Shown here piece by piece: positions 26,817 to 43,993 of a stretch of DNA of 48,036 nucleotides. The notes under the pieces are model-generated. The model did not search any database. It saw nothing but the letters and a program-made list of their open reading frames with translations, and was not told the DNA's origin. Within the stretch, counting starts at the first letter, position 1; the number at the start of each line of letters is the position of its first letter. The stretch is taken from assembly GCA_015852425.1 (NCBI GenBank), contig JAAAIG010000215.1, positions 1 to 48,036 on the forward strand, written 5' to 3'. This DNA is from Gryganskiella cystojenkinii. Taxonomy: Eukaryota; Mortierellomycota; Mortierellomycetes; Mortierellales; Mortierellaceae. Position numbers and translations under genes: made by a program.

Positions 26817-27813
26817 CTACTTGGTATTGACCTGAGTCTCTCTCCACTCCTGCTTTTGTTGTTCGGTCATGTCAGCGTACTTGCCCTATAAGAGAGTAGA
26901 GAGAGAGAAAAGGTGGGTTAGAAATGTAGATCAGAAACGGAAGGGAGCAATTAAGAACGTCTGCTGTCTGGTTGATCCGGTTCCTCGTTGATCCGTGATG
27001 CCGAGTCGAAGTTTCCATACCTTCAAGGAGCTTCCACTGAGATCAAAGGCGCCCATCATGGCTCCCATTCCGAGGCATCCAAAGACCATCGTCTGAGCAT
27101 TGCGCTGGAAACCACCAGCAACAATTCCTGACGCACATCCAGCAGCGACAGAGTTCCATGCATCCTTGGTCTCACGGGCGTTGGCAACAGCAGAGTCGGT
27201 GGCGGCAAAGACACCGGCCATGGCGGCTAGAATATAAAGAGTCGAAAAAAACATCCATAGAGAGGAACGTCAGTCTTTCTTTTCCACTTTTACAGAGTTG
27301 TTTTGGTATTTTTTCACTTGGCTTGAATCGAATATCGAATCAATCCGAGCCAAGCTAAACAAGTCCTGAAAGGACAAAAGTCTCGATGGTATCGACGAAA
27401 GGCTTCCTGGGTAGAGTGTGGCACGCAAAAAAAAAAGGAAATATCGCTCCAGGGGCTAAATATGCCACCCAAGTTCGGGAAACAGAAGAAAAGTCGATGG
27501 GGCGCGTTTGCTGATCTGTCAAGAGTTGCTTGGATGTTCCTTGGTCGTCTGTGTGTTCCCCTCGAGACAAAGAAAACTGCATTCGACATCCGATGAGAAA
27601 AAAAGAAAAAAAGAAGAAAAGAAGGTCCATACCAAAGACACCGATGGTGCCTCCGGTTCTGGCAACGACACCGACGGCTCCGTGCGAGTGAGTTCCGACA
27701 GAGTTCTGGACGGCGGAGACAAGGAGACCGACACCGGCACCGATGGCACCGGCTTGGAGACCCTCCTTGATGGGGGCCTTTGCGTGATAGACGGTATCCT
27801 CGGCAACGGACAT
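26817..27813 (-). CDS. Mitochondrial complex I subunit NDUFA11/B14.7-like (Tim17 family)
   Basis: Three exons on the minus strand (27813-27633, 27226-27021, 26885-26817); 151 residues. Fungal relatives are the 21.3-kDa subunit of NADH:ubiquinone oxidoreductase, in the membrane arm. Four Gly/Ala-rich membrane segments are seen: EGLQAGAIGAGVGLLVSAVQ, ARTGGTIGVFGAMAGVFAAT, SVAAGCASGIVAGGF and MVFGCLGMGAMMGAFDLSG. The N-terminal EDTVYHAKAPI and the DAWNSVAAGCASG block match the NDUFA11 branch better than Tim17/22/23. The last exon ends with a hydrophilic Gln/Glu-rich tail. Its presence shows a respiratory fungus with complex I, unlike Saccharomyces. Confidence 0.87.
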
Positions 27814-28350: not shown

Positions 28351-29028
28351 TTAAAGGCCCCCCAACAGTGACTTGCCGAGTCCCGCAAGGATTTTGTTAT
28401 CCTCCACTTCAGCTTTGGTCTTTGCCGTGATAGGGATGTGTAAGTTCTTGGCGCTAATAAGATCATCTCCGCGACGACCAATTTTGTTGTTTTTGACATT
28501 GACGTTTGTATTGAGCTTGATAGGGGCATTGAGGTCGTCGAGGTTCACGAGACCGCGCTTGCCGAGGAGATGACGTCCAAGTCCCTCAAGGATTTTGTTG
28601 TTCTCCACGTCAACCTTGGTCTTTGCCGTGATAGGGATGTGTAAGTTCTTGGCGCTAATAAGATCATCTCCGCGACGAAGGATTTTGTTGTCTTTGACAT
28701 TGACGTTTGTAATGAGCTTGATAGGAGCTTTGAGGTCGTCGAGGTTCACGAGACCGCGCTTGCCGAGAAGATGACGTCCAAGTCCCTCGAGAATTTTGTT
28801 GTTCTCCACGTCAACCTTGGTCTTGGCCGTGATAGGGATGTGTAAGTTCTTGGCGCTAATAAGATCATCTCCGCGACGAAGGATTTTGTTGTCTTTGACA
28901 TTGACGTTTGTAATGAGCTTGATAGGAGCTTTGAGGTCGTCGAGGTTCACGAGACCGGGCATTGGGGCAGCTTGGACAGAAGCAAGCGCGACGAAACAGA
29001 TGGCGGCGACAAGCGAGATGCACTTCAT
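28351..29028 (-). CDS. Secreted KEX2-processed repeat protein (peptide precursor)
   Basis: Single exon, 225 residues, family not recognised. Residues 1-20 are a clear signal peptide (MKCISLVAAICFVALASVQA). The rest is APMP and three 67-residue repeats, 25-91, 92-158 and 159-225. Repeats 1 and 2 are identical in protein; repeat 3 diverges and lacks the final KR. Dibasic sites occur at fixed places: RR at 51-52, 118-119 and 185-186, KR at 90-91 and 157-158. Each repeat would give two peptides, one beginning GLVNLDDL and one beginning GDDLISAKNLHI. No Cys and no N-glycosylation sequon lie in the mature part. This is the plan of fungal KEX2-processed repeat proteins, which include pheromone precursors. 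The function of this one is unknown. Confidence 0.85.
   Translation of the reverse strand: MKCISLVAAICFVALASVQAAPMPGLVNLDDLKAPIKLITNVNVKDNKILRRGDDLISAKNLHIPITAKTKVDVENNKILEGLGRHLLGKRGLVNLDDLKAPIKLITNVNVKDNKILRRGDDLISAKNLHIPITAKTKVDVENNKILEGLGRHLLGKRGLVNLDDLNAPIKLNTNVNVKNNKIGRRGDDLISAKNLHIPITAKTKAEVEDNKILAGLGKSLLGGL
28354..28554 (-). repeat. 201-bp coding repeat, unit 3 (diverged)
   Basis: The third and C-terminal unit of the secreted repeat protein, residues 159-225. It keeps the RR site (NKIGRRGDDL) but ends LGKSLLGGL, so the Lys-Arg that closes the other units is gone. About a dozen residues differ from units 1 and 2. Confidence 0.92.
28555..28755 (-). repeat. 201-bp coding repeat, unit 2
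   Basis: Residues 92-158 of the secreted repeat protein. By eye it differs from unit 1 at about four bases (for example CTCAAG against CTCGAG at the plus-strand position of the EGLG segment), all silent. That suggests recent duplication or gene conversion with selection on the peptide. Confidence 0.92.
28756..28956 (-). repeat. 201-bp coding repeat, unit 1
   Basis: Residues 25-91 of the secreted repeat protein, directly after the signal peptide and an APMP tetrapeptide. It ends with HLLGKR. Confidence 0.92.
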
Positions 29029-29134
29029 GGTTGTTGTTGTTTTTCTGGGTGATATCGGAGTTGTTTGGTGATGAGGGAGAGATGAAGATGAGAGGAGAGA
29101 CGAGTAAGGAAAGTAGAAGCGAAAAGTAGCTTCT

Positions 29135-29141
29135 CTTTATA
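29135..29141 (-). promoter_or_regulatory. TATA box of the secreted repeat gene
   Basis: TATAAAG on the minus strand (in GATATAAAGAGAAG) lies about 107 bases before the start codon, a fitting place for a transcription start about 75-80 bases upstream of the ATG. Most other genes in the window lack such a box, which suggests regulated, possibly strong expression. Confidence 0.55.
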
Positions 29142-31778: not shown

Positions 31779-33671
31779 TTAATGATGGTTGAGCTGCTCT
31801 TCGGGGTGAAGTGGAGTCGTCAGGGGCATGGGTTGTGTAGTTTGTTCTGCTGCTTGCTCCTGTTGTTCCTGTTGCAGCTGCTGTTGCTGCAACAATTCCT
31901 GCTGTTGGATTTGTTGTTCAATGGTCTGGTAGTTGTCACTGTTCCGTTTGATGATCTCTACAACGGGTCCCAAGAGGCGGACAAAGGCTCTCTTGCCCAA
32001 GGTCGCGCACTTTAGCCGTCCCTTGGCCCTGACTGTTGCAGCTCGTGGCATGTCGTTTAACAAAGCAAGTTCTAGAAAAAAAAAGAAAACAGAGTCTCAA
32101 GCGTTTAGTAATATGCTCAAGGTAAGGGAGTAGGAGGTAGTAACAGATAACGAGACAAATTGCATTTGACGTATTACCTCCGAAGTATTGGCCGGGTCCC
32201 AGTCCAGGCATAGGAAATTCCACGCCTTCATCGTTACACTTGGTGACTGTCGCCTCTCCAGACTCGATGATGAAAAAGTTATCGCCCTGGTCGCCCTGCT
32301 TCACAACAGCCTTGCCGTCCTCAAAATAGACCGATTCCAAAGCATCGGCAATCTTGTGACGTTCATATGGCTCCAAAGAGACCAGCAAAGGTACCGTCTC
32401 CAAGAAGGCTTCATACATGCGTCTCTTTCTCGAGGTGTTCTCCATGAGGATCCGACGGAACGTAATGCGATCAAGAGCCCAGAGAACGACATCCGAGGTC
32501 GCGGTGACTGTGGCGGCACGGGGTCCGTTGTACATGAGCGCGAGCTCTCCAAAGCTTCCTCCGGGTCCGTACTCAAAGACTTTCTCTGCAGGGTTTCCGC
32601 CCTTTGCCACAAAAACGTCCAAGGTTCCAGTTTCGACCACGTAGAAAAAGTCACCAACGGCTCCTTGCTCGATCACATTGTCCTTGCACTTGAATCTCTT
32701 TTCCGTCATTGCGTTTACGACATCCTCATGTTGATCCTCGTCTAGGTTCTTAAACAAGAAGTTGTTTGAAATCGAGATCTCAATTCGTCGGCGCTGCTCG
32801 TCTGTCTTTGGGATAACGGTCTTGACGTAATTTTGGTGACTGGGGACCATACTCTCAGCACTGACGGAGGTTCGACGACCTCTGAGCATGTAGTTTGGTG
32901 GGACCTCTGGCTGTGAGCCTCCGTCTTCCTGAGAATCGTCACTGTCACTTCCGCTATCGCTCTCCATAGAGTGATCCGGGCTTGATGCGGCGGGCGTGGC
33001 GGCACTGCTGACTCTTGGAGATGCGGCCGTAGGGGTTGCAACAGCTGGCAAGAATTGCGGGACGTCTCTAGTTTGTGGAGCTGTTCGGGCTATCAATGAA
33101 CAAAAGAGAGGTTATTTGGCAATAATGGTTAGATGATAAGATGAACCCAAGAAATATTTTTTTTCCCCATGACAGATAGCGGGAGGAAGGACATGGTGTA
33201 TTCTGGTCCCATCCAACGTCCGTTCGCTCCTTTTACCCACAAACAAAGCGCGGCAAAAACCTGATCAATGGCTAGTTCTCCACGTCCATTCTCGCGTGGC
33301 GGGAGGTACCAAAGCACACGCACTTGTATCCTATGTCTTCTGTCTTCTCTATCTTCTGTCCCTCGTCGTCCTTATCCATCTCTCCAAGCGTCAGACTCTC
33401 TGTCGAAGCGACTGGCCAATTGATTTATCCTCTCCCTTTTTTTTCTTGTTTTCCCGCTTTCCACGAGCGGTTCTTTTTTTATCATACCTGTTGCTAAAAA
33501 TCGAACCCGCTGCTCCTCAAGCTTTTGGTTGAAGTAATTGGCGCAGAACTGGAGCACATCCTGGGGTTGAGCAGAAATAACCTTCTGATTCAAATCATTA
33601 AGGATTTCGGCATATGCTTGCGGCATAGACCGATGGATGGGCGACTGAGTGGATGTCGACGAGGCAAACAT
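31779..33671 (-). CDS. cAMP-dependent protein kinase regulatory subunit
   Basis: Three exons on the minus strand (33671-33488, 33089-32178, 32071-31779); 462 residues. The regulatory subunit holds PKA catalytic subunits inactive until cAMP binds. An N-terminal dimerisation/docking helix pair (about 15-60, [20 protein letters not shown]) leads into an acidic Ser-rich linker. The inhibitor site RRTSV at 133-137 has Ser, so it is an autophosphorylated, type II-like site. Two cyclic-nucleotide-binding domains follow, each with its phosphate-binding cassette: [16 protein letters not shown], and [16 protein letters not shown], which is split by the last intron. The C-terminal 45 residues are a Gln-rich tail not found in the yeast protein Bcy1. 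Confidence 0.97.
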
Positions 33672-35780: not shown

Positions 35781-38535
<2,755 letters not shown>

Positions 38536-38694: not shown

Positions 38695-41600
38695 ATGAGC
38701 TCCCAACATTCGATTCCATCACTGCTTCAGTCTGCTCCATTACGTCTCCAGCCCAAAAATGCATCCGCCCTCGCACCCATAGTCTTTGTGGATGCAACAA
38801 CCATGGGCATTGGCTCCGATTCTGTCTCTTCTCTTCCAGACACGCCAGTTGACCAACATAGCCTCAGGAGCAGCTCTAGTCGCCGCAACCTCCACAGCAC
38901 CACCCTGAACTCCGACAGCGAGCAGTCACCAGACCGGGACGTGGCACAGACCTTGAAGAGCACCTCAGACTCTGAGGCAACAACAAGAGCACTCGATGGT
39001 CAGACATCACCACTCGAGCAAGCCTTGACCCGCGGTCCTCCCCTCCAACTCAGGGCCTCGATCGCAATCGATCAGGACAAGCAGCTTCAAGAGAAGCTGG
39101 TCCAAGCCAAGGTCCAGCTGGTACTTGTCCTGGCTGCGTTGGTACAGTTGCCGGACCATCGGCAGACCTGGTTGGAGCAGAGCAGGACAGAGCTCATGGT
39201 TCTAGACAAAGTGAGTTTATTTTTTCGCACGTTTCTGTTCGCCTGATGAGCACGAACCCTCATTAGAACTTTGTAGGCTGACCCTGAGTGCGAGAATTCT
39301 TGCTTTTTGCTTGCGCGTCTCTCTTTTTACTTTCCCGTCCCAAATATGCAAGGGGCATCTTGAGGGACATTTTGTGAAAACTTTACCCTTGCAGATCATA
39401 GAGAATGTCCTGGTGATCGGTTTTACTTTGCTCGTCGTCCCGTCCCCAAATACCAGCGCCAAGGTTCTCTCCGAATACCCCTCTCTCGATGGATTCTTAC
39501 CTTGGGCTGAGGCCTCCGTGGCAGTAGAACATTTCGTTACAGGACAGACAACCTCACGTGGTCATGATCATGCAAATTCCGAGTCGGGTACCGATCCAGC
39601 GACCCAGTTCTCGGTCCCGCTCATTGAGATCTCTTTGTCTTCTGAGGGAGATCACAAGAAAAGAAAAACGACTATCGCAACCTTGACCATTGTGGTGGAA
39701 GAGGTAAACAAAAAACAGTTACAGCCATGATCCGTCCCCCTTATTCTTGTTTTTTTTTGGACAAAGAGCTCATCCAACCATATTGCATTTGTCATTGTTA
39801 GTCCTTGCCGATAGTCACCCCTGCAAAAGTCAACGCGGAGAGGTCAAGAATCGGTCCCAGTTTCTCTCAGACATATTATGGCCATTCAGTGCGCGGTTCT
39901 GTACTATACGCTCGCGAGAGCCTCTACGAATCTCCTTTGGCGTTTACACTCCCCGTCAAGCTCCTCCAATTCTTGGCTGAAGACGAAGATCGGGTCCTTC
40001 AAGAGTTAGAGCGTGAGCAAGACGTGTCGTTATCTGACCTTGTACAGTCTGTGCCTCTGGACCATCGACCTAACCCGATCACGCGAGGCGTTAGCTTTAT
40101 GGAGACGCTGCGGCGGAGTGCTAGTCGACACGAGCCGGATGTGTCACGTTTATCCACCAAAGCTCGACAGGCTGGACTGTCGAACGAAGATTCTCAGCTT
40201 CAAAAGCTTATTCGACAGCAGATCAGCGCCCATAGAAACATCAAGGGATTCTACGAGAGTATGATCCTCAAGGTGGAGCAGAGGCTGCGAGACAACTTCG
40301 AGACTGGACAAGGGCCTTTCAGACGAAGCCCAGAGAAGAAGGATGAGTCTGTTCAGTGGATCCCTATCAATTGTTGCGTTCAAGATCTTTTGGTGCATGA
40401 TGACGGTCACCGTAAGTACCATTTGAAAAAGGACTCTTTGCTACAGAAGTCGAAAAAGGTCAATTTCTGACGATAATTGGTTGTCTGGACATTTAGAGGT
40501 CAATTACAAGTTCACGACAGTCGGCGCTGCTGCTGCACACGGCGCGGGCTTTGCTCGAGGCTCAGGCGCCTCCAAACTTGGAAATGCTCACCCTATGGGT
40601 AATTACTGGGACAAACAGGAGAAGGGACAGGACTTGATCAGGGACCTTGAGGCTCTTAGAGAAGTACTTGCCAGCAGCGCTAATGAGTACACTTCTTTGA
40701 TCGCGGAGGCTCCAGAGATCCAAGACAAAGACAGGATCCAAGCGATTGTGAAGGAAACGCGGTTTCTTGTAGTTGAGATCGTGTCCTTTGGTACCTACCT
40801 GTTGGACGAATTCCTAGCCCAAGAGTCCGCCGAGGGTTTCGGCCAGTTCATTCGTAGCGAGATCAACGAGATTGTGACGCGCCTTCGAAAGATGGACCTC
40901 TCTGATTGCGAGGAGTCAAACCAGGAATCAGGCCCTCCACTCTCGGCAGTCTGGACGGCGCATATCAAGCGTTCGATCAAAGACATATTGGCTTGCACTA
41001 ATGACCTTGTTGGATTTGTGGCAGTGGCGGTCCAGCTCGAGTGTCTTGTCACGGATTCAGAGACAGTTGCTGGTCCAGAATGGATCACGGAAAAGCGGAC
41101 AAGGGAGTGCTGCTTTTCTCAGGCGACGACCGCGTTAGCGACGGCGTTCTCAGCCCTGTTGGAGGACTGGTGGTGCGAAATGTCCCAAGCGCTCCAAATC
41201 AAGGCCAATCGAGCGTCTCCCATGGCAGCAGACCATCGCTCCGCAGGAGGAATGGATCAAATTGCCAAAGAATCGAACGTTGACGGGTCTCCCGCGCGGG
41301 CTTCACTGGACATCCAACATGGAGCACAGACCACGATGACCGACCCTTCGCTCAACAAGGCGGAGGCACGTCGACCCTCTCTCCAATCTACACTCTCCGG
41401 CGGCTCCACTCACAGTACTCGGCGTAAACACGGGAGAGTCGACCGATCAAAGCCCGACTCTGTCCACCCGCTCGAGGGTATACCATCAGCTAAAGCCCAG
41501 AATGAGGCGTTTTGGGATCAGCTTTCGACCCTTGGGTGGCTCGTGCAGATCGAGAGTTTATTGTCGACTCAGGGCAGCGAGTTGGGAATGCTGCTTGACT

Positions 41601-43993
41601 ATCTACAGGCCATCGTCGATGTCCGTACCTCTGTTTCGGTTGGATTCCATGCTCGTCTTACGAAGGTCATCGCAGAGGCAGATGGCTCCACGACTGATGG
41701 GAGGATCGGAGACGACTCTATCCAGATTTCTGGCCGTCGGGGAAAATTGACGCTGTCGTTTGGTCTCGATCCTTTGCAGTTCAGCTTGCTTCCCGATGCT
41801 CTGAGAGCTGGCACGTCCTCTATTCGGATTATTCCAGTCCTGTTTTCCCAAGGGATCAACGAAATGCAGACACTCTCGAATCTCACAGGAAAATCACCTG
41901 TCCAGCGTGCCATTAACGAGAAGGGACTTCGACAGATGCAGAATTTTGTATCTCGGTACCAAGAGTGGCAAACACAGAGAAGAGCGGCGCAAGAGCAATC
42001 GCAACGCCTGCGAGACAAATCTCGCATTCGAGAATATGGACCGAGTGCTACGGGGTCGAATCTGGGTCATCTCTCGAACACTTCGTTATTGTCGGATCTG
42101 GGTGCAGACTGGGATATGGTTTCACCTAGTGGAGCGGAAATGTGGCATGGGGAACCTTTGGTTGGAGAATTATTGGATCGCTTGGAGATGGCAATCCTGG
42201 GTCGCGATGACGATATCTCACAGCTTGTGGACGAGTCAGTCGAGATTACAGAGAGCGGTGATGTCCATTTGAACTATCCCTCGCCGCGCGACGAAGCGTC
42301 CGGCGCTACTAGAGCACGAACAAAGTCCGGATCCGAACCAAACCCAGGACTCTTAGGTACTGTCGTCGAGTATGGGACCTCAAGACTCTTCAGTGCGAGA
42401 GCAACCAAGGATGTCAACATACTGCAGTGCGCAGAAGCGCTCACGCGAGCCCTGGGACAAGTCCGACCGCCTTTTAGCACTCATGGAGCGCCGTTGACCT
42501 CGGTTGCGGTTGACCATGTCCGTGGGGTGACAGAATTATCAGATATGTCATCAAGCACGTTGCTATCGTCGTCTCTCTGGGTCACTAGTCACGTTGTGTC
42601 CTGTAAGAGCGCCAAAGACAGAACCTCCATGGCGGTGACTCTTTCGCAAGCGAACCTGTTACGCGTGTGCCACGGTCTGCAAGCCTATCAGGAACAGAAC
42701 GGCGGTGACGATTGGCAGGCGATCCTGGACGCGATGAGGAGCGAGGTTGGCGTTCGGATCAAAAACGTTGAGAGAAATCTTAAGCTCGGTGTATTTGCAA
42801 AGGACCTACTTTGGCTTTCAGCTTTTTCATCGAGTTCTCAGCCAGTGTCGGAAGATCAAGTCTTTGACAACATGCACTCTATCAATCACGAAACGCCAGA
42901 GATGAAAGATGCTGTGTCTTATATTCGATCCCTTATTCCTGGAACCGCCCCTGTGTCCATGTCCGAACAAGACCCAGGGAGACAAAACAGTCAATCGAGT
43001 ACTTTGATTGACGACAACTTGAGCTCTCCTCGATCCCTTGGGTTTGATGCCGAAGATGATGAGAGCGTGACCGTGGTTGATCGAGATCTTTCAGCGGAAG
43101 GCTCTGTCCCTTCCAGAGTCCTTCAAACGATTGTGCCGGTATCGCCCAACTCTCCGCCGCCACTGCTCCCAGAATCGACTGTTGAGCCGGCCTCCGTTCT
43201 TCCCGTAACAGAGCCAAGTCCGGTTCAGGAGAATGAATTTAACGATGGACTCGCTGGGGATGTGCCCGCTATGGTGGATGACACTTCGTCTATCAACAAC
43301 AGCGTCAGCGGTTCATCTTTGTCTATGGAAACAAGACCGTCGGCTGTGCAGGAAGAACACTACACATCATTCCCCAACGGTTTTGACGAGCCACAATTCT
43401 CTGACCGGATTGCTCGCAAGTTGGGTCTTGATTCGCGTGGTAGATCTTCCATTATTACCTCTGATACGCTTCCTCGGAATGATTCTTCTCAGAGTGTATC
43501 TCAGAATGGGGATCAAAACTGTCAGCCTGTGAGCTCTGAGTCGCACACCTCCCTGAAGCTTCGACCAACTCCATCGTGGTCTTCTCAACAGTCGATTTAT
43601 TTCCAACTACAACAACAACCGCAGCTGCTGCAAGCTCCAAACAACAAGCGTATGTCGACGTTTGGAATAGGACTTGGATTTTTAACAAAATCGAACAAAG
43701 GCGAGTCTTCTTCTTCTACATTCTCGAAGCCACTCCAGCATCCCCCTCCAGCTTCAAATCAACGACCGAGCCTAGGTGTTCTTGGTCGTGAATCGACTTT
43801 ATCCACAGACCTATCCTCTCCTCTGTGCTCAAATGCAAGCTCAAGTGTGGGTATCGTAGATGCGACAGGAGGAGGCCATCAGGATCGGGCATCTAAAAAG
43901 GGCAAGTTTGCGTTCAACAAGTTGCAGCTCAAGTTTCTACCTGCGGCCTATCGTCCTCCTCGTCGAATGACCACAAATGTGTTTGAGAGTTGA
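38695..43993 (+). CDS. INPP4-like inositol polyphosphate 4-phosphatase
   Basis: Four exons, 38695-39210, 39395-39703, 39802-40411, 40497-43993; 1643 residues, much longer than animal INPP4 (about 950). The CX5R catalytic motif CKSAKDRTSM is at residues 1181-1190, with C1181 the expected nucleophile; animal INPP4 has CKSGKDRT. It is preceded by SLWVTSHVVS and followed by QANLLRVCHGLQAY, a context like INPP4. These enzymes remove the 4-phosphate of PtdIns(3,4)P2 on endosomes and the plasma membrane. The N-terminal 170 residues are disordered; residues 150-480 have beta-rich and helical parts where INPP4 carries a C2 domain, not recognisable by eye. The C-terminal 400 residues are Ser/Pro-rich and end with a basic segment (KLQLKFLPAAYRPPRR). 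Confidence 0.85.

What the first reader, a model, noticed from the sequence alone, without database searches (positions are those of the whole stretch)
28351..29028. Undescribed secreted repeat precursor with KEX2 sites, a candidate peptide hormone, pheromone or RiPP precursor
Seen directly: a signal peptide, three head-to-tail 67-residue units, KR between units and RR inside each unit, no cysteine, single exon, its own TATA box. Established: fungal KEX2-processed repeat proteins with this layout give rise to secreted peptides such as alpha-type pheromones, Ustilago Rep1 peptides and cyclic RiPPs. Inference: this gene releases about six peptides of two kinds. The peptide sequences match no family I know, and mating peptides of zygomycete-grade fungi are poorly known.
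Basis: partly seen in the sequence, partly recalled or inferred. Interest (0 to 1): 0.88.

Follow-up and report, generated by a model that had tools for sequence, protein, structure and literature searches.

The report
Secreted precursor of repeated fungal peptides
A fungal gene encodes a secreted protein made of three near-identical blocks with cutting sites for a processing enzyme, so it probably releases six small peptides; this layout is widespread in fungi, but these particular peptides are not recognised and their job is unknown.

Summary
Observation confirmed: an intact 225-aa minus-strand frame (28351-29028) with a signal-peptide-like start, three 67-aa units, RR inside each unit, KR between units, and no cysteine after residue 11. 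Each unit is itself two diverged halves (25 ungapped residues; 0 of 20,000 shuffles score as high). All four arginines and both dibasic pairs of the unit lie in the linkers between halves (46 of 200,000 shuffles). The KR not needed, after the last unit, is absent. The genome holds a kexin homologue, and searches found one copy of the gene. Best reading: a KEX2-processed repeat protein (KEP) giving three peptides of about 26 residues and three of 37-39. KEPs were reported in 38 of 39 Mucoromycota strains, most types in one genus, so this is a new member of a known kind. Its job is open: peptide length leans towards structural, repellent-like peptides, but amphipathicity is not clearly above chance and no fold is confident.

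The parts
28351..29028 (-). Coding sequence of the repeat precursor, 225 aa, one uninterrupted frame with stop at 28351-28353
28969..29028 (-). Predicted signal peptide, residues 1-20, MKCISLVAAICFVALASVQA; cut expected after VQA (cuts after residue 16 or 17 also satisfy the simple rule)
   Evidence: (-3,-1) rule and most hydrophobic 10-mer of the protein at residues 6-15; no SignalP available, so inferred
28957..28968 (-). APMP, residues 21-24: two X-P dipeptides before the first unit, possible dipeptidyl-aminopeptidase (Ste13-type) trimming site that would give unit 1 the same N-terminus as units 2 and 3
   Evidence: sequence; DPPIV-type matches in the genome; trimming itself inferred
28756..28956 (-). 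Unit 1 (67 aa): half A 28873-28956 ending RR, half B 28756-28872 ending KR
28555..28755 (-). Unit 2 (67 aa): half A 28672-28755 ending RR, half B 28555-28671 ending KR
28354..28554 (-). Unit 3 (67 aa, 82% identical): half A 28471-28554 ending RR, half B 28354-28470 without the terminal KR (ends LLGGL-stop)
29135..29141 (-). TATAAAG, 113 bases before the ATG, possible TATA box
   Evidence: motif only

Best explanation
The gene encodes a KEX2-processed repeat protein. The chain enters the secretory pathway, the signal peptide is removed (inferred), and a kexin cuts after RR and KR, with carboxypeptidase trimming of the basic tails and perhaps dipeptidyl-peptidase trimming of AP-MP (inferred). 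Six peptides result: three of about 26 residues (GLVNLDDL...NKIL or NKIG) and three of 37-39 residues (GDDLISAK...LLG or LLGGL). All six carry one related motif ending in NKI, which suggests descent from one ancestral half-repeat. The most likely job, held weakly (about 0.35 given processing), is extracellular and non-enzymatic: peptides that coat or modify the hyphal surface in the manner of Ustilago Rep1 repellents, rather than a small diffusible pheromone or a cyclic toxin. The confidence given here is for the processed-precursor reading.
For: Signal-peptide-like N-terminus. Five dibasic sites and no others, in register. Half-repeat homology: local score 50 with 0 of 20,000 shuffles as high; 1 of 20,000 with the dibasic tails removed. 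In the unit, 4 of 4 Arg lie in the two linkers and 8 of 9 Lys in the cores; dibasics in both linkers and none elsewhere in 1,730 of 200,000 shuffles, all Arg in linkers in 618, both in 46. The KR that would not be needed at the end is absent, while RR in unit 3 is kept next to a changed residue. Kexin: P-domain match at C808 (60.3 bits, profile positions 1-59 of 86) and a catalytic piece of the same locus matching Kexin at 6.6e-68 and furin at 7.2e-55. DPPIV_N: three matches on two contigs. Peptidase_S10: ten matches. For the surface reading: the B peptides (37-39 aa) fall in the 35-53 aa range of Rep1 peptides (PMC4617103 passages), the A peptides (26 aa) do not.
Against: No peptide or transcript data. 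The number of dibasics alone is ordinary: shuffles of the unit have two in 6,091 of 20,000. The linkers were named by me after seeing the sequence, so the shuffle test is not fully independent. For the surface reading: the strand-type hydrophobic moment is not clearly above shuffles (A 1,009, B 420, A3 105, B3 375 of 5,000), net charge is only 0 to +1, and an isolated unit gives no confident fold (pLDDT 49.0, pTM 0.18).
Confidence: 0.8

Rival explanations
1. The protein works intact, as a secreted or wall-bound beta-solenoid repeat protein; the dibasic pairs are linker residues and are not cut, or only partly.
For: AlphaFold2 of the full length, from one sequence, shows a strand pattern that repeats with the half-units, pTM 0.63 but mean pLDDT 59.5. 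Weak, sub-cut-off Pfam Beta_helix match, E 0.003. Many of the 50 Foldseek rows shown are pectate lyases and similar enzymes, which I recall as right-handed beta-helices, though best E is 0.032 and no TM-score shown exceeds 0.30.
Against: The five models disagree widely (mean pLDDT 59.5 to 27.7); 0 of 89 Foldseek matches have E <= 0.001; AF2 is reported to predict unrealistic beta-solenoids for perfect repeats (PMC11795689 abstract); a single unit gives no confident fold. Arg confined to linkers.
Confidence: 0.15
2. The precursor is processed and the peptides are diffusible signals: an alpha-type mating pheromone or hormone acting on a G-protein-coupled receptor.
For: Same precursor logic as alpha-factor: signal peptide, KEX2 sites, X-P dipeptides before the first unit, DPPIV-type matches in the genome. 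The pheromones of many early-diverging fungi are described as largely unknown (PMC6339444 section 18).
Against: Peptides of 26 and 37-39 aa lie outside the 9-24 aa range; X-P dipeptides do not follow the KEX2 sites; no STE2 or STE3 match in the genome, without a positive control. Mucoromycotina are reported to use apocarotenoids.
Confidence: 0.15
3. The units are cores of cyclic or otherwise modified RiPPs of the ustiloxin type.
For: KEPs include RiPP precursors (PMC7329392 passages).
Against: No Tyr, Trp, Phe or Cys in the mature protein; UstYa not found in the genome, without a positive control; in the 2020 survey's table 0 of 357 Mucoromycota KEPs are counted with DUF3328; 26-39 aa is long compared with the 8-14 aa units quoted for ustiloxin, phomopsin and asperipin precursors.
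Confidence: 0.03
4. The precursor is processed and the peptides are antimicrobial or membrane-active defence products.
For: Peptide B has a helical moment, highest at NKILEGLGRHL, that is reached by 171 of 5,000 shuffles; this is one of eight such tests.
Against: Net charge 0 to +1; the unit-3 version of B is unremarkable (1,390 of 5,000).
Confidence: 0.08

Closest known systems
KEX2-processed repeat proteins (KEPs), surveyed by Le Marquer 2019 (PMC6339444) and Umemura 2020 (PMC7329392)
   Same: Signal peptide, three repeats, KR/RR between them, repeats fill most of the protein, kexin in the genome
   Different: The peptide sequence matches nothing I could search; two related peptide types arise from an internal half-repeat; peptides are longer than the 9-24 aa class that is commonest in Dikarya, as noted for Mucoromycota
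Ustilago maydis Rep1 repellents (seen here only in passages of PMC4617103 and PMC9769878; the original papers are not held)
   Same: Linear KEX2-released peptides from a secreted repeat precursor; B peptides of similar length
   Different: No sequence comparison made; 3 units rather than 12 repeats; A peptides shorter; amphipathicity not clearly above chance; amyloid formation unknown
Ascomycete alpha-type pheromone precursors
   Same: Signal peptide, KEX2 sites, X-P dipeptides before the first unit
   Different: Longer peptides, no X-P/X-A spacer after KEX2 sites, no aromatic residues, no STE2 match (control silent)
Ustiloxin-type RiPP precursors
   Same: KEX2 repeat layout
   Different: No Tyr/Trp/Phe/Cys in the mature protein; no UstYa match (control silent)

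Membership tests
KEP | Secretory signal peptide | tested here: met
   Residues 1-20 by hydrophobicity and the (-3,-1) rule; SignalP was not available
KEP | At least three similar fragments between KR/RR/KK sites | tested here: met
   Three A and three B fragments, five dibasic sites
KEP | Repeats occupy at least 15% of the protein | tested here: met
   201 of 225 residues; threshold from PMC6339444 passages
KEP | A KEX2 protease in the genome | tested here: met
   P_proprotein match at C808; catalytic piece of that locus best matches Kexin
KEP | Released peptides detected | not testable with these tools
   needs peptidomics
KEP | Cut sites conserved in homologues | not testable with these tools
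   protein database off; only one copy found in the genome
Rep1 repellent | Amphipathic peptides | tested here: inconclusive
   strand-type moment reached by 1,009, 420, 105 and 375 of 5,000 shuffles for A, B, A3, B3
Rep1 repellent | Surface-active amyloid-like fibrils | not testable with these tools
   bench test needed
Rep1 repellent | Sequence similarity to Rep1 | not tested
   no Rep1 sequence was fetched
Alpha-type pheromone | Peptide length 9-24 aa | tested here: not met
   26 and 37-39 aa; range from PMC6339444 passages
Alpha-type pheromone | X-P/X-A dipeptides after the KEX2 sites | tested here: not met
   KR/RR is followed directly by GL or GD; X-P only before unit 1
Alpha-type pheromone | STE2 receptor in genome | tested here: inconclusive
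   no match, but the control was silent in all 14 genomes
Ustiloxin-type RiPP | Core with residues open to cyclisation, typically Tyr (recalled) | tested here: not met
   mature protein lacks Y, W, F, C
Ustiloxin-type RiPP | UstYa (DUF3328) partner | tested here: inconclusive
   no match in genome, control silent in all 14 genomes

The most novel reading that the evidence does not exclude
The gene makes a new class of surface-assembling or signalling peptide in an early-diverging fungus: two co-released, related peptides (A and B) that descend from one motif and act together, for example as a two-component fibril coat standing in for hydrophobins (no match to the Pfam hydrophobin family PF01185 was found, without a positive control).
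Probability: 0.15. Interest if true: 0.65.

Novelty: new member of a known kind. Interest (0 to 1): 0.38.

Why it matters
The roles of KEPs in early-diverging fungi are stated to be still undetermined (PMC6339444 section 18). This gene gives exact, testable peptide masses and termini. It also shows a two-level repeat, an old half-repeat inside a recent unit, in which cut sites and arginines are kept to the linkers, a kind of evidence for processing that does not need homologues. As one more KEP with an unrecognised sequence it is otherwise expected.

Tried and rejected
Homologue search in the 5.8-billion protein set: not possible. Close relatives in viral and prokaryote contigs: none confirmed (0 of 14 and 0 of 74 pattern matches); those collections are described as viral and as bacterial and archaeal, so this is weak. 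Paralogues in the genome: only the gene itself and its own three units. Amidation idea (GKR resembles animal amidation signals, recalled): no Cu2_monoox_C match, control silent; dropped. Beta-solenoid reading: low-confidence model and weak Foldseek matches. Amphipathic-strand argument: not supported by shuffles. PDB sequence search: 0 matches at E up to 1. Papers holding Mortierella, Kex2, repeat and secreted peptides together: 0; three further listings gave nothing on this gene by title or abstract start. The organism was not identified; the 18S search did not complete. Other KEPs of this genome were not surveyed, since the genome gives no file.

Full report
What is there. The window is contig C238 of a 34.99-Mb, 1,050-contig genome. 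At 28351-29028 on the minus strand lies one open frame of 225 codons plus stop. Tandem Repeats Finder gives a 201-base period over 28379-28957 at 95% matches. The protein is a 20-residue signal-peptide-like start, APMP, and three units of 67 residues. The only dibasic sites are RR at 51, 118 and 185 and KR at 90 and 157. Units 1 and 2 are identical in protein and differ by four codons, all synonymous; with 46.3 synonymous of 201 sites that would happen by chance with probability about 0.003 (my arithmetic). Four changes are few. Units 1 and 3 differ by 11 synonymous and 12 non-synonymous codons.

A deeper repeat. Within a unit, LVNLDDLKAPIKLITNVNVKDNKIL and LISAKNLHIPITAKTKVDVENNKIL align over 25 residues without a gap, BLOSUM62 score 50, reached by 0 of 20,000 shuffles, and by 1 of 20,000 when the dibasic tails are left out. 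So the precursor is six copies of one motif, in two diverged types. Ten of 39 alignment columns are invariant in all six.

Where the cut sites lie. The two linkers left by that alignment, RRGDD and EGLGRHLLGKRG, hold every arginine of the unit (4 of 4), both dibasic pairs, and 1 of 9 lysines. In 200,000 shuffles of the unit, 1,730 have dibasics in both linkers and nowhere else, 618 have all arginines in linkers, and 46 have both. The number of dibasic pairs alone is ordinary (two in 6,091 of 20,000 shuffles). I chose the linkers after seeing the sequence, so these figures are somewhat generous. Two further details fit processing: the last unit, after which no cut is needed, lacks the KR and has GK where the others have GR, while its RR is kept beside a changed residue; and AP-MP before unit 1 is what a dipeptidyl aminopeptidase could remove to give unit 1 the same start as units 2 and 3 (inference; it assumes the signal-peptide cut after residue 20, while cuts after 16 or 17 also satisfy the simple rule).

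Machinery. The genome has a P-domain match at C808. Listing the frames of that locus and comparing one of them with solved structures gives Kexin at 6.6e-68 and furin at 7.2e-55, which also suggests a fungus. Three DPPIV_N matches lie on C364 and C122 and ten Peptidase_S10 matches are listed; I did not tell Ste13 or Kex1 from their relatives. STE2, STE3, UstYa, hydrophobin (PF01185) and Cu2_monoox_C gave no match, but none rang in any of the 14 control genomes either, so these are not proofs of absence.

Surroundings. Pfam was run on the precursor and on ten other frames of the window, nine of them from the 42 frames of at least 150 aa. Seven of the ten had a match, one of those (Pkinase) below its cut-off; the others are Tim17, cNMP_binding, FHA and forkhead, C2, and ubiquitin-like domains. 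No RiPP-type enzyme is among them; the other frames were not scanned one by one.

Copies and relatives. The whole protein finds only itself and unit 3 finds only the three units. For the precursor Pfam gives nothing above cut-off and the PDB nothing at E up to 1. Five 8-letter peptide words occur in none of the 5.39 million open-licence papers held.

Structure. AlphaFold2 on the full chain alone gives a regular strand pattern at mean pLDDT 59.5 and pTM 0.63, with five models from 59.5 down to 27.7. Foldseek finds 89 matches at E <= 10 and 0 at E <= 0.001. AF2 is reported to predict unrealistic solenoids for perfect repeats (abstract of PMC11795689). One unit with a three-row alignment gives pLDDT 49.0 and pTM 0.18. 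I draw no fold from this. The hydrophobic moment of the strands is not clearly above shuffles.

Comparison with the known. KEPs were found in nearly all fungi of a 250-species survey (PMC6339444 passages and section 18) and in 1,345 of 1,461 strains, among them 38 of 39 Mucoromycota strains with 357 KEPs, 0 of them counted with DUF3328; most types were found in a single genus (PMC7329392 passages). Neither main text names Mortierella; their supplements could not be read. In Coprinopsis cinerea, deletion of six KEP genes gave no visible phenotype (PMC9769878 passages). The gene meets the sequence criteria of a KEP. It does not meet the length or spacer criteria of alpha-type pheromones, nor the residue criterion of ustiloxin-type RiPPs. 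Rep1 peptides of 35-53 aa (PMC4617103 passages) are the nearest in size to the B peptides; whether these peptides assemble on hyphae cannot be told here.

Verdict. A real, probably processed, secreted peptide precursor; a new member of a known kind; function open, with a weak lean to surface peptides.

Noticed in passing
window 26931-27813, minus: Neighbouring frames; the one at 26934-27254 has a Tim17-family match, the one at 27355-27813 none. Probably one gene in at least two exons for a mitochondrial membrane or complex I subunit (inferred); ordinary.
   Followed up: partly
window 36137-38535, plus: FHA domain followed by a forkhead domain split over two frames, presumably by an intron: a Q/A-rich transcription factor.
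   Followed up: partly
window 31936-33111, minus: Two cyclic-nucleotide-binding stretches in one frame, likely the regulatory subunit of protein kinase A (the name is inferred).
   Followed up: partly
window 40427-43993, plus: Long frame of 1188 aa without a Pfam match that contains CKSAKDRT, recalled as the catalytic motif of inositol-polyphosphate 4-phosphatases.
   Followed up: no
window 29115-29134: A 6-pair inverted repeat next to the TATA-like motif, found on both strands by the terminator scan (2 found, shuffles mean 0.2); the scan is made for bacteria and the meaning is unclear.
   Followed up: no
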